In this document: piece after piece, positions 6,916 to 50,609 of the stretch
Layout: every line of letters starts with the position of its first letter
Numbering within the stretch: the first letter of the stretch is position 1
Source of the DNA: Agromyces kandeliae
GTDB taxonomy: Bacteria > Actinomycetota > Actinomycetes > Actinomycetales > Microbacteriaceae
Reading direction: 5' to 3'
NCBI RefSeq assembly: GCF_009674665.1
Contig: NZ_WKJD01000018.1
Location: 62,001 to 126,000, forward strand
Length of the DNA: 64,000 nucleotides
The notes under the pieces: model-generated
Told to the model about the DNA's origin: nothing
What the model saw: only the letters and a program-made list of their open reading frames with translations
Databases searched by the model: none
Position numbers and translations under genes: made by a program

Positions 6916-6939
6916 CGGGTGTCGCGATCGTGACACCCG
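6916..6939. promoter_or_regulatory. 24-bp near-perfect palindrome, putative operator of the KAS III-HDO operon
   Basis: Positions 6916-6939 read the same on both strands except for one symmetric mismatched pair (22 of 24 bases). The outer arms are CGGGTGTC and GACACCCG around a CGATCG core. The element ends 7 bp before the -10 hexamer at 6947 and 20 bp before the ATG at 6960, where a repressor would occlude the -35 region. It lies between divergent genes, so a terminator role is unlikely. No regulator gene is adjacent. Confidence 0.65.
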
Positions 6940-6946
6940 CGTGCCC

Positions 6947-6959
6947 TACTGTCATCCCC
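6947..6959 (+). promoter_or_regulatory. Leaderless promoter -10 element of the KAS III operon
   Basis: TACTGT at 6947-6952 followed by 7 nt and the ATG at 6960. No Shine-Dalgarno sequence precedes the ATG. The spacing fits actinobacterial leaderless transcripts and recurs at many genes in this window. No good -35 match is visible; the palindrome occupies that place. Confidence 0.6.
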
Positions 6960-8102
6960 ATGGGCACGACGGCGTCTGCGTACCTCACCGGCTTCGGGCG
7001 GTACCTTCCGGGTGAGCCGGTCGACAACGACGGCATCGTGGCGCGCCTCGGCGGCGACGACCCGGTCACCTCACGCATCCGCGGCATGATCCTCGACCAG
7101 AACGGCATCCGGCAGCGGCACTACGCGCTCGACGAGCACGGCGAGCCGACCGAGCTCAACGAGGAGCTCGCGGTGAAGGCGCTCCGGGCGGCGCTCGACG
7201 ACCGCGGCATCCGCCCCGACGACCTGCGCATGCTGGCGACCGCGACGACCATCGGCGACGTGCTCGTGCCGGGATTCGCATCGATGGTGCACGGCCGCCT
7301 CGGCGGCGGACCGATGCAGCTGCTCTCGGCGTCGGGCGTCTGCGCCTCGAGCCTGCAGGCCCTCGACGCGGCGGTGGGCAAGGTCAAGCTCGGCGAGCAC
7401 CCGAGGGTCGCGGTCGTCGGCTCCGAGCTCGCGAGCCGCAGCCTCCGGCAGCGCCGGTTCGACGGCATCCGCGCGGGCATGGACTCCCACTTCCTCCGCT
7501 GGATGCTCTCCGACGGCGCGGGTGCCGTGGTCGTCGAGTTCCAACCGCACCCGACCCGCCCGTCGCTCCGCGTCGACTGGGTGCGCCACGTCTCGCTCGC
7601 GCACGAGCACGACGTGTGCATGCGCGCGGGGATGGACGGGCTCGAACCCGAGGTCGGACGCACCTGGCAGGACGTCGGCATCGGCGACGCCGAGGCATCC
7701 GGCATGTTCGTGCTCCGACAGGACGTCGGCGTGCTCGACGACCTCGCCGGCGCGGGGCTCCGCGAGTTCGAGCAGCTCGTCGACATCGGACTCGTCGACG
7801 TCAGCCACCTCGACCACGTCGTCTGCCACTACAGCACGAACGCCTTCCGCGACCTCGCCTTCGACGGGCTCCGCAAGCGCATCCCGACGCTCGACACCGA
7901 TCGCTGGTTCTCGAACCTCGAGACCTGCGGCAACACGGGCGCGGCGAGCATCTTCATCGCGCTCGAGGAGGCGTGGCGCACCGGCCGGTTCTCGCCCGGC
8001 GAGACCATCCTCCTCGCCGTCCCAGAGTCGGGGCGGTTCTCGTTCGCCTTCGCCCATCTCACCGTGGTCGCCCCACCCGAACCGCAAGGAGCAACGACAT
8101 GA
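6960..8102 (+). CDS. 3-oxoacyl-ACP synthase III-like (KAS III/OleA-type thiolase superfamily) enzyme
   Basis: This 380-aa protein carries the complete Cys-His-Asn triad of KAS III enzymes: Cys128 in SGVCASSLQA, His290 in CHYSTNAF and Asn325 in ETCGNTGAAS. FabH proteins condense acyl-CoA with malonyl-ACP, and OleA-type relatives condense two acyl chains. The size, the N-terminal insertion after residue 60 and the unusual neighbours suggest a specialised rather than housekeeping role. No acyl carrier protein or other fab gene is present. Start ATG 6960 is leaderless. The stop overlaps the next start (ATGA), so the three genes 6960-9719 form one operon. Confidence 0.88.
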   Translation: MGTTASAYLTGFGRYLPGEPVDNDGIVARLGGDDPVTSRIRGMILDQNGIRQRHYALDEHGEPTELNEELAVKALRAALDDRGIRPDDLRMLATATTIGDVLVPGFASMVHGRLGGGPMQLLSASGVCASSLQALDAAVGKVKLGEHPRVAVVGSELASRSLRQRRFDGIRAGMDSHFLRWMLSDGAGAVVVEFQPHPTRPSLRVDWVRHVSLAHEHDVCMRAGMDGLEPEVGRTWQDVGIGDAEASGMFVLRQDVGVLDDLAGAGLREFEQLVDIGLVDVSHLDHVVCHYSTNAFRDLAFDGLRKRIPTLDTDRWFSNLETCGNTGAASIFIALEEAWRTGRFSPGETILLAVPESGRFSFAFAHLTVVAPPEPQGATT

Positions 8103-8818
8103 CGACCGACACGACCGCGACCGCGTCGACGGCGGATGCCCCCGGCTCGACCTCGCCCGGCGAATCCGCCGCACTCTCCGAGCGGCTCGCCGAGGTGTGG
8201 GTCGGGCTCGAGGAGCGCCTCGACCGCGTGCCGATCCTGCGGGCGCTCGCCGAGGGCACCGTGACCATCGACGACTACCGGCGGCTCCTCTTCAACCTGC
8301 GGCAGCAGGTCGTCGACGGGTCGCCGTGGATCTCGCGTGCGGCATCCAACTTCGACATCGACCACTTCACGTTGCGGGCGGCGGCGATCACGCACGCCGA
8401 GGAGGAGCACCGCGACTACCTGATGCTCGAGCGCGACTACGTCGCGATCGGAGGGTCGCTCGACGAGTTGCGCGCCGGCCGGAAGAACCTCGGCTCCGAG
8501 GCGCTCTCGGGCTACATGTTCACCTACGCCGACCGGCCGAACCCGGTGGGGCTGCTCGGGGCGATGTTCATCATCGAGGGCCTCGGCGCGAAGCGCGCGG
8601 CGGGCTGGGCCGCACGGTTCCAGGAGGTGCTCGGGCTCGCCGACAACCAGGTGCACTTCATGCAGTACCACCAGGAGGCAGACGGGGCGCACACCGGCGA
8701 CCTGCAGGCGATCCTCGACTCGGGCATCATCGACGACGCGGCCGCCGACGAGATCGTCCGCTGCGCCGAGGTCGTGGCGCGGCTCTACGCCCTGCAGCTC
8801 GAAGAGCTGGACCGCTGA
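8099..8818 (+). CDS. Iron-containing redox enzyme, heme-oxygenase-like diiron oxidase (HDO) family
   Basis: The 239-aa all-helical protein resembles the TenA/PqqC/UndA fold. A full set of candidate metal ligands is visible: Glu101-Glu103 and His104 (HAEEEHRDY), Glu160 (FIIEGLG), and His191, Asp195 and His198 (QYHQEADGAHTGD). HDO enzymes use a diiron centre and O2 to cleave or desaturate fatty-acid- and amino-acid-derived substrates (UndA, BesC and SznF are known members); PqqC uses no metal. The first 28 residues are a low-complexity Thr/Ala/Ser tail. A strong AAGGAG ribosome site lies inside the end of the KAS III gene. Its place after a thiolase suggests it acts on a beta-keto or fatty acyl product. 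This is inference. Confidence 0.85.
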   Translation: MTTDTTATASTADAPGSTSPGESAALSERLAEVWVGLEERLDRVPILRALAEGTVTIDDYRRLLFNLRQQVVDGSPWISRAASNFDIDHFTLRAAAITHAEEEHRDYLMLERDYVAIGGSLDELRAGRKNLGSEALSGYMFTYADRPNPVGLLGAMFIIEGLGAKRAAGWAARFQEVLGLADNQVHFMQYHQEADGAHTGDLQAILDSGIIDDAAADEIVRCAEVVARLYALQLEELDR

Positions 8819-8819
8819 C

Positions 8820-9719
8820 GTGGCGAGGATGCCGAAGGTGCCGGTGCCGAAGATGGCGGTGCCGCGGGTGCCCGAGTACGTCCGCTCCGATCCGAGCATG
8901 TGGCAGGCGGTCTACGCCGACCCGTCGGTGCCGCTCGACCGCGCGCTCGTGCGGCAGATCATCAACGACCAGCGCCGGCTGTCGCGTCGCTGGCTCTACC
9001 CGATCGCGCGCGTCGTCTCACGGGTGCTCGTCGCGCTCATCTCGATCGTCAAGCGCGTGCTGCCGTTCCGGTGGATGCCGCTGCACACGATGGACGTGCT
9101 CTGCGTGTGGTTCCTCCGCCGGTTCGTCTCGCCCGACGCGGTCGACCTGCTGATCCGGCACTTCGTCGTCGAGACGAACCTCGTGAACTTCATCATCCGG
9201 AACACCCCGGTCGACATGGAACCGGTGACGCTCCGGCCCGAGAAGCTCTCCGGGCTCGGCGACCAGGCCGTCGTCGAGCACGACGTCAACGTCTACGACG
9301 TGCTCATCGCCCTCGACGACGTGAAGCTCGCCAAGCCCGAGACTCTCGACTTCTCGCAGCTCGACGTGCCACCGCTCGACGCCGAGCGGGGTCGTCGCCG
9401 GCTGCTGCGCCTCGACATCCAGACCGCGCTCTGCTTCATGAACATCCCGTTCTCGATGGCGCTCACCGTCGAGGAGTACCGCCGCGCCGTGCACTCGATC
9501 CGCTTCGACGACTCGTTCCTCGAGATCCTCGCGCTCGTCACCGACGACGACACCTTCCGGCACTGGAAGCTCGCAGGCATGAGCCTCTGGATGGACTCCA
9601 ACGTCGACGTGCCGCGCATGGTCTACCGGCACGCGCTCGTGTGCGAGTACGCGCACGCCCGGCTCGTGAAGCTCGCGGGCGGGGCGTACCCGCGCGACAC
9701 CGACGTCGCGTTCGACTGA
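8820..9719 (+). CDS. Unrecognised 299-aa protein of the KAS III-HDO operon
   Basis: I do not recognise this family. It starts at GTG 8820, one base after the HDO stop (ATG 8829 is an alternative). The N-terminus is proline-rich with repeated V-P pairs (residues 6-18). Two hydrophobic/amphipathic stretches follow (about 60-80 and 88-105), too basic to be certain membrane spans. Next are conserved-looking His114 and Glu118 in RHFVVETNLVNF, an acidic segment DVNVYDVLIALDDV, and a C-terminal helical half with RHWKLAG-like and YRHALVCEYAHAR motifs. The tight coupling means it serves the same pathway, possibly as a membrane-associated acyl-handling or second redox protein. A strong hairpin terminator follows. 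Confidence 0.75.
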   Translation: MARMPKVPVPKMAVPRVPEYVRSDPSMWQAVYADPSVPLDRALVRQIINDQRRLSRRWLYPIARVVSRVLVALISIVKRVLPFRWMPLHTMDVLCVWFLRRFVSPDAVDLLIRHFVVETNLVNFIIRNTPVDMEPVTLRPEKLSGLGDQAVVEHDVNVYDVLIALDDVKLAKPETLDFSQLDVPPLDAERGRRRLLRLDIQTALCFMNIPFSMALTVEEYRRAVHSIRFDDSFLEILALVTDDDTFRHWKLAGMSLWMDSNVDVPRMVYRHALVCEYAHARLVKLAGGAYPRDTDVAFD

Positions 9720-9736
9720 GCGGGGAACGACGACGA

Positions 9737-9770
9737 CGGATGCCCCGGGGCCGGCGCCCCGGGGCATCCG
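9737..9770. terminator. Bidirectional hairpin terminator containing the GGATGCC word
   Basis: Perfect 15-bp stem: 9737-9751 with its complement 9756-9770, loop CGGC. Arms begin CGGATGCC and end GGCATCCG. It separates the convergent ends of the KAS III operon (9719) and the ABC exporter operon (9793). Confidence 0.8.
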
Positions 9771-50531: not shown

Positions 50532-50563
50532 CGTCGGGCGCGTCCGCGCGCCGCGGAGACGAC

Positions 50564-50595
50564 GAGAGGCGGATGCCACGCGGCATCCGCCTCTC
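50564..50595. terminator. Bidirectional hairpin terminator containing the GGATGCC word
   Basis: Perfect 14-bp stem GAGAGGCGGATGCC (50564-50577) with 50582-50595 and a 4-nt loop ACGC. Lies between the convergent SulP (stop 50531) and MHS transporter (stop 50610). Confidence 0.82.
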
Positions 50596-50609
50596 GCCCG
50601 ATCAGGGGG

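What the first reader, a model, noticed from the sequence alone, without database searches (positions are those of the whole stretch)
6960..9719. Three-gene operon: KAS III-like thiolase, diiron HDO oxidase and an unrecognised 299-aa protein
Seen: three genes with a 4-nt overlap and a 1-nt gap, a 24-bp near-palindrome and leaderless -10 in front, and a perfect 15-bp terminator behind. The thiolase keeps Cys128-His290-Asn325 and the HDO protein keeps a plausible full metal-ligand set. Known: UndA, BesC and SznF show that HDO enzymes do unusual O2 chemistry, and OleA-type thiolases condense acyl chains. Inferred: a thiolase product (beta-keto acid or fatty acyl) is oxidised by the HDO enzyme to an alkene-, ketone- or lactone-like product, with the third protein as membrane-linked partner. 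No acyl carrier, thioesterase or regulator is adjacent. I know no characterised pathway with this trio.
Basis: partly seen in the sequence, partly recalled or inferred. Interest (0 to 1): 0.75.

Follow-up and report, generated by a model that had tools for sequence, protein, structure and literature searches.

The report
Resorcinol-type synthase with diiron-like partner
Three adjacent genes that nearly always occur together in scattered bacteria appear to encode a small pathway that joins two fatty chains into a ring and then oxidises the ring with oxygen, using an unusual iron-type enzyme and a third protein of unknown function.

Summary
The trio is real and a conserved unit. Of 52 named loci encoding a relative of the third protein, 50 hold matches to all three genes in the same order. 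In one sample of 150 family genomes each gene was found in the same six. A diverged copy sits in Pseudoalteromonas; Caulobacter vibrioides rings for all three families (adjacency untested). In Glycomyces and four Catellatospora the first two genes are fused. The first protein is not OleA-like: its nearest characterised relatives are StlD/DarB ketosynthases, which make cyclohexane-1,3-diones; it scores below that family's curated cut-off. The second has the heme-oxygenase-like oxidase fold, but the His of its first metal-ligand motif is Asp in 52 of 52 sequences. The third is Pfam DUF6999, with no solved relative. Two non-trio DarB-like genes in actinobacteria have a DarA-like gene next door; none of ten trio genomes or records searched has one. 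Best reading: ring formation, then O2-dependent oxidation of that product by the second protein in place of DarA, probably decarboxylating aromatisation to a dialkylresorcinol. Product and DUF6999 role are inferred. New variant of a known kind.

The parts
6960..8102 (+). StlD/DarB-like ketosynthase, 380 aa; Cys128 (codon 7341), His290 (7827), Asn325 (7932)
   Evidence: NF005293 E 8e-94, 314.7 bits, under curated cut-off 450; PDB StlD 5gk0 E 1.4e-63; triad 52 of 52; tree
8099..8818 (+). heme-oxygenase-like oxidase, 239 aa; candidate ligands E103, D106, E160, H191, D195, H198, plus invariant H99, E102, H104 and a D or E at 73
   Evidence: PF14518 E 8e-10, 39.3 bits over cut-off 28.9; AF2 pLDDT 89.7; Foldseek 3dde TM 0.80, CADD 0.77, UndA 0.69; conservation
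8820..9719 (+). DUF6999 protein, 299 aa, GTG start; invariant H114/E118, E153-H154-D155, E219, H271/E276
   Evidence: PF22523 E 1e-96; 51 of 51 conservation; AF2 pLDDT 78.7, all alpha; no PDB match at E <= 0.001
8099..8102 (+). ATGA overlap of genes 1 and 2
   Evidence: an ATGA-type overlap in 37 of 50 named loci, 5 more fused, 1 damaged
6947..6952 (+). TACTGT, -10 of a leaderless start (TANNNT-N7-ATG)
   Evidence: same arrangement in 39 of 51 loci against 8 of 1245 window ATGs
6916..6939 (.). 24-bp inverted repeat in front of the operon; kept only imperfectly in the closest relatives
9737..9770 (.). 15-bp perfect hairpin behind the operon, possible end of transcription; not conserved, no T-run

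Best explanation
The operon encodes a self-contained route to a 2,5-dialkyl six-membered ring. Step 1 (inferred from family): the StlD/DarB-like ketosynthase joins a beta-ketoacyl and an alpha,beta-unsaturated acyl thioester from fatty-acid metabolism (Michael addition, then Claisen ring closure; mechanism recalled) to a 4-carboxy-2,5-dialkylcyclohexane-1,3-dione. Step 2 (inferred from fusion, operon and fold): the HO-fold oxidase takes this product directly and oxidises it with O2. The most likely reaction is UndA-like: the carboxylate binds the metal, hydrogen is taken from the beta-carbon, CO2 leaves, and the new ring C=C tautomerises to a 2,5-dialkylresorcinol. It would thus replace the separate aromatase (DarA) of known DarAB pathways. 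Step 3 (weakest): DUF6999, probably membrane-associated and carrying an invariant His/carboxylate set, modifies, hands on or supports this step. Shown here: gene identities, conserved trio, fusions, invariant residues, no DarA-like match in the ten trio genomes or records searched. Inferred: substrates, product, metal content, role of DUF6999. My odds: KS makes a cyclic dione 0.8; oxidase acts on the KS product 0.8; decarboxylating aromatisation 0.4.
For: KS nearest to StlD among solved structures, E 1.4e-63 against 1.3e-16 for the next protein, and NF005293 E 8e-94. DarB's product is given as 4-carboxy-2,5-dialkylcyclohexane-1,3-dione (PMC5515871, passages); DarB is called cyclase and DarA aromatase (PMC3949708, passages). 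KS and HDO fused in one frame in Glycomyces paridis and four Catellatospora, 5 of 50 complete named loci. All three matches in 50 of 52 named loci; same 6 of 150 genomes; 4 of the 5 genomes with a DarB-like KS at E 1e-60 among 396 phylum genomes are the same 4 that hold DUF6999, the window's own included, and the fifth (G299), like a Streptomyces plasmid, has a DarA-like gene directly behind the KS. A DarA-like query finds nothing in 10 of 10 trio genomes or records and hits G299 (trio in G489 checked). In a tree with 14 of the 52 trio KSs, Pseudoalteromonas included, these form one side of a branch beside the DarA-type ones (93/93; one change in 96% of bootstrap trees). HDO fold matches UndA and CADD. 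In the five substrate-bound 3H/3C HDO structures the substrate ligates Fe1, in UndA through its carboxylate (PMC13108848, parts 1 and 2 of 6 read).
Against: The window KS scores 314.7 bits, under the curated 450 of its family, so its reaction may differ. The oxidase has Asp where characterised HDOs have a core-helix-1 His, so metal binding and UndA chemistry are not assured. The Pseudoalteromonas oxidase has no PF14518 hit at E 0.1. The DarA-like comparator matched no Pfam or NCBIfam model; calling it DarA rests on position and a recalled flavodoxin-type motif, and a single-sequence query could miss a distant DarA. The tree has long branches that meet, and its trio branch is below the tool's starred level. 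W01 is only the chromid record of Pseudoalteromonas, so absence there is not genome-wide. Three Bacteroidota plasmids carry a DarB-like KS with neither a DarA-like nor an oxidase gene annotated beside it, so a missing neighbour alone proves little. No product is known.
Confidence: 0.45

Rival explanations
1. The ketosynthase makes a cyclic dione, but the oxidase hydroxylates, desaturates a side chain or cleaves the ring, so the end product is an oxidised cyclohexanedione, a quinol or a ring-opened compound rather than a dialkylresorcinol.
For: HDO reactions are diverse (PMC13108848); the altered ligand set could alter chemistry; a third conserved protein suggests more than the two steps of DarAB.
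Against: No DarA-like match in the ten trio genomes or records searched, and the carboxylate on the expected KS product, make decarboxylating aromatisation the economical choice.
Confidence: 0.3
2. One reading: an OleA-like thiolase gives a beta-keto acid or acyl chain, and the HDO turns it into an alkene, ketone or lactone.
For: Thiolase fold with Cys-His-Asn; UndA uses fatty acids.
Against: StlD is by far the nearest solved relative; entries that I recall as OleA (3fk5, 5vxd, 3row, 3s21, listed under generic synthase names) appear only at E 2e-5 to 1e-3. In the 21 sequences compared, no gene beside the trio recurs in all or most of the others, so no thioesterase, ligase or OleB/C/D set travels with it.
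Confidence: 0.1
3. The HO-fold protein is not a metal oxidase but a metal-free one (TenA and PqqC share the fold without metal) acting on an enolate that reacts with O2 by itself; the conserved acidic and His residues are acid-base groups.
For: Foldseek also ranks TenA-type proteins high; metal-free HO-fold enzymes exist (PMC13108848); the canonical His is lost; 1,3-diones are acidic (general chemistry).
Against: E103, E160 and HxxxDxxH at the HDO ligand positions are invariant in 52 of 52.
Confidence: 0.12

Closest known systems
DarA/DarB (StlC/StlD) dialkylresorcinol and stilbene biosynthesis
   Same: Ketosynthase of the same lineage with the same triad; lipid-derived substrates expected.
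   Different: No DarA-like match in ten trio genomes or records searched; instead an HO-fold oxidase, often overlapping and sometimes fused, and DUF6999. KS under the curated family score.
UndA (HDO fatty-acid decarboxylase, 1-undecene)
   Same: Fold (TM 0.69); expected substrate carries a carboxylate with a beta C-H.
   Different: Core-helix-1 His replaced by Asp106; partner is a ketosynthase; ring rather than chain substrate (inferred).
MboA/MboB (HDO with dedicated redox partner, mangotoxin)
   Same: HDO encoded with a dedicated companion; a core-helix-1 Asp ligates iron in one of four crystal chains (PMC13185094, passages).
   Different: MboB is a flavin/Fe2S2 reductase; DUF6999 matches no such family. 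MboA keeps 3 His/3 carboxylates.
Proteobacterial cassette with HDO, AMP-binding enzyme and SDR (L064, L065, L070, L071)
   Same: Nearest other HO-fold relatives found on plasmids, 22-27% identity.
   Different: The three that I aligned keep the canonical ExxH; no StlD/DarB-like KS is annotated in the stretches fetched.

Membership tests
StlD/DarB ketosynthases | curated NCBIfam score (NF005293, 450 bits) | tested here: not met
   314.7 bits; 0 of 150 and 0 of 396 genomes over cut-off. Not filed as a member; nearest known kin.
StlD/DarB ketosynthases | Cys-His-Asn triad and StlD as nearest solved relative | tested here: met
StlD/DarB ketosynthases | forms 2,5-dialkylcyclohexane-1,3-diones | not testable with these tools
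   needs enzyme assay
DarAB pathway | DarA aromatase encoded beside or elsewhere | tested here: not met
   0 of 10 trio genomes or records with a DarA-like query, found in the one comparator; the query's identity as DarA is itself unproved
HDO (heme oxygenase-like dimetal oxidase) | HO-like seven-helix fold | tested here: met
HDO (heme oxygenase-like dimetal oxidase) | 3 His/3 carboxylate ligands: D/ExxH on core helix 1, E on 2, HxxxD/ExxH on 3 | tested here: not met
   helices 2 and 3 met; helix 1 reads E103xxD106 in 52 of 52. Filed as HDO-like, not as a 3H/3C HDO.
HDO (heme oxygenase-like dimetal oxidase) | two bound metal ions | not testable with these tools
   model coordinates were not among the files in the Python box; needs metal analysis
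DUF6999 | Pfam PF22523 over its cut-off | tested here: met
   323.4 bits against 27

The most novel reading that the evidence does not exclude
A further way of using the heme-oxygenase-like fold: a carboxylate-rich (2 His/4 carboxylate, as in classical ferritin-type diiron enzymes) oxidase that aromatises a ketosynthase product on the spot, replacing flavin-type aromatases, with DUF6999 a so far unknown metalloenzyme that performs a further step on the lipid resorcinol in the membrane.
Probability: 0.22. Interest if true: 0.82.

Novelty: new variant of a known kind. Interest (0 to 1): 0.62.

Why it matters
If right, dialkylresorcinol-type lipids, known elsewhere as antibiotics and pigment parts (PMC3949708, passages) and signals (recalled), have a second, oxygen-dependent route in Actinomycetota, Pseudoalteromonas and perhaps the model bacterium Caulobacter. 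It would add ring aromatisation and a new metal-ligand set to the HDO enzymes and give DUF6999 a first role. Natural KS-oxidase fusions make the two-step reaction directly testable with a single protein.

Tried and rejected
OleA-like thiolase: rejected as first choice, StlD far nearer. DUF6999 as another HO-fold protein: profile comparison with the HDO alignment gives probability 1.6%, Foldseek matches to HO-fold chains are at E above 1 with TM 0.10-0.17, so not supported. Neighbouring genes as parts of the system (pyridoxal decarboxylase, PNPOx, ABC-2 transporter, PadR): in a comparison of the window with 20 of the loci, frames of the trio region recur in all 20, other window frames in at most 4. 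Palindrome as conserved operator: kept imperfectly in L008-L010 only. L043 was first listed as a fusion by my script; the printed translation shows a stop between the genes, so it is not. L059 (Brachybacterium) also came out fused, but its KS is cut after the Asn and its DUF6999 match is in two pieces, so I do not count it; it stayed in the KS and HDO counts and was dropped from the DUF6999 count. L050 and L058 lack KS and HDO matches and were left out; L058 is a short contig cut at the gene. For one search I used the 50 named loci plus window and Pseudoalteromonas, not the unnamed G-genome loci. A wider survey of Pseudomonadota was not possible: 'of' takes only genome handles and the E. coli record was not held. 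The VIA structure library was absent. No hit in viral contigs. Of the papers listed in searches (lists capped) none bore on the trio by title or abstract start; one search found no paper with the word DUF6999.
Full report
Observation. The upstream repeat, the -10-like hexamer and the downstream hairpin are also there. The source genome is 3.78 Mb in 22 contigs, the window's GC about 0.7; the closest named loci are Agromyces.

Identities. KS: Pfam ACP_syn_III C-terminal domain, NCBIfam StlD/DarB family E 8e-94 but 314.7 bits against a cut-off of 450, PDB StlD E 1.4e-63, next protein 1.3e-16. Oxidase: PF14518 over its cut-off; AF2 model pLDDT 89.7; Foldseek best 3dde TM 0.80, CADD 0.77, UndA 0.69. 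Third protein: DUF6999, E 1e-96; AF2 pLDDT 78.7, all helical; no PDB match by sequence profile at E up to 10 or, at E 0.001, by fold.

A conserved unit. The search for related loci with the third protein gave 52 named loci: Agromyces, Microbacterium, Schumannella, Cellulomonas, Demequina, Isoptericola, Pseudactinotalea, Brachybacterium, Glycomyces, Catellatospora. Matches to all three proteins, in order, are in 50 of 52. The exceptions are a remnant in Cellulomonas sp. KH9 (which has a full copy elsewhere, L032) and a short contig; a third locus, Brachybacterium L059, looks damaged. In one draw of 150 genomes of the family, DUF6999, the oxidase and the KS were each found in 6, the same 6, the window's genome among them. 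In phylum and class draws DUF6999 was in 4 of 396 and 6 of 394: rare and patchy. Flanks are not conserved (window and 20 loci), so the trio behaves as a portable cassette. A Pseudoalteromonas chromid, the only plasmid-collection record with DUF6999, has the same order, with 42%, 48% and 27% identity. Among 14 named control genomes, Caulobacter vibrioides rings for PF22523, NF005293 and PF14518; adjacency there was not tested.

Fusions. In Glycomyces paridis and four Catellatospora species the KS and oxidase are one open frame, with a DUF6999 start codon overlapping its end. Fusion in 5 of 50 loci, and an ATGA-type overlap in 37 of 50, is the strongest hint that the oxidase acts on the KS product.

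Two kinds of DarB-like KS partner. At E 1e-60, 5 of 396 phylum genomes hold a DarB-like KS. Four are the DUF6999 genomes. The fifth (G299, L072) and a Streptomyces plasmid (L062) have a related gene directly behind the KS (47% identical to each other over 286 columns) with a YSQxGQ segment near its start, which I recall as flavodoxin-like and typical of DarA; no family model confirms it. This protein, used as a query, matched 0 of 10 trio genomes or records and G299. In a tree of 20 rows, with 14 of the 52 trio KSs, these 14 form one side of a branch (93/93; one change in 96% of bootstrap trees) next to the two DarA-type KSs; long branches are flagged. Against a simple rule: three Bacteroidota plasmids have a DarB-like KS with neither partner annotated beside it. 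Published passages name DarB as cyclase and DarA as aromatase (PMC3949708), report that darA and darB expressed together give a dialkylresorcinol (PMC3992019), and give the DarB product as 4-carboxy-2,5-dialkylcyclohexane-1,3-dione (PMC5515871). Two Microbacteriaceae genome papers mention predicted resorcinol clusters, one of them in under 10% of Microbacterium genomes (PMC12089952, PMC7438953, passages); these may be this KS, which I could not check.

Metal site. AetD shows the canonical pattern: D76xxH79 on core helix 1, E on 2, an HxxxExxH motif on 3 (PMC11611611, passages). The trio oxidase has E160 and H191xxxD195xxH198, but core helix 1 reads E103-H-R-D106 where 3dde and three plasmid-borne relatives read E-x-x-H, without gaps from E102 to G119. 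E103, D106, E160, H191, D195, H198 and also H99, E102, H104 are invariant in 52 of 52 sequences. Of the sets named in a 2026 review (3H/3C, 3H/4C, mononuclear with two helix-3 ligands lost; parts 1 and 2 of 6 and passages seen) none is this one. In MboA a neighbouring Asp of the same helix ligates iron in one chain (PMC13185094, passages). Whether H99 or H104 compensates cannot be told without coordinates or metal data.

DUF6999. H114/E118, E153-H154-D155, E219, H271/E276 are invariant in 51 of 51, Pseudoalteromonas at 25% identity included. They lie on four predicted helices. I read this as a possible metal or acid-base site (inference). Residues 59-80 are hydrophobic and amphipathic, and residues 1-105 carry net charge +12 against -11 for the rest, which fits peripheral membrane contact. 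It is not related by profile to the oxidase.

Regulation. TANNNT followed by 6-7 nt and the KS start is found in 39 of 51 loci against 8 of 1245 ATGs of the window; loci are related, so this is not 39 independent events. In 9 of the other 12 a TGAAT-like element sits at the same distance, 7 of the 9 with TGGCTGAAT. The palindrome is kept with one mismatch in L008 and two in L009 and L010, and is no general feature.

Mechanism. Carboxylate at C4 of the expected KS product and hydrogen at C5 set up the same reaction that UndA does on a fatty acid: bind carboxylate, remove beta-hydrogen, lose CO2, form C=C. In this ring the product is a tautomer of a 2,5-dialkylresorcinol. This step is inference from known chemistry; for UndA itself C3-H abstraction is one of two mechanisms under discussion. 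The role of DUF6999 remains open.

Verdict. A real, conserved three-gene biosynthetic cassette for which my searches found no description; new variant of the DarB-type pathway with an unusual HDO-like enzyme.

Noticed in passing
L063, L080, L081 (Prevotella, Bacteroides ovatus, Phocaeicola plasmids): A lone StlD/DarB-like ketosynthase gene lies directly behind a TetR or HTH regulator gene on plasmids, with no DarA-like or oxidase gene annotated beside it; possibly a plasmid-borne signal synthase and receptor.
   Followed up: no
L064, L065, L070, L071: Recurring proteobacterial cassette: 'thermostable hemolysin' annotation, AMP-binding enzyme, HDO, SDR; in Pseudoalteromonas shioyasakiensis the HDO match lies inside the AMP-binding gene.
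   Followed up: no
L050:8001-8663 (Cellulomonas sp. KH9): Second, N-terminally cut DUF6999 copy without KS or HDO match, a remnant beside the full trio of L032.
   Followed up: partly
L059:6368-8603 (Brachybacterium squillarum): KS reading runs from just after the catalytic Asn straight into the oxidase; DUF6999 match in two pieces; looks damaged.
   Followed up: partly
upstream of KS in L042, L045-L047, L054-L057: Loci without TANNNT share TGAAT at the same distance from the ATG, within TGGCTGAAT in 7 of these 8; perhaps another sigma factor.
   Followed up: no
upstream of KS in L012, L022, L024 (Microbacterium): Perfect inverted repeats with 9-bp arms around GGATGCTG, unrelated to the window's palindrome, 0 of 100 shuffles as good.
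   Followed up: no
window 50563-50596: A second perfect 15-bp hairpin with a 4-nt loop, the only other one of 13 bp or more (loop 3-8) in the window.
   Followed up: no
L061:12645-13202: In Pseudoalteromonas a 185-aa protein with no family match sits directly in front of the KS, likely in the same operon.
   Followed up: partly
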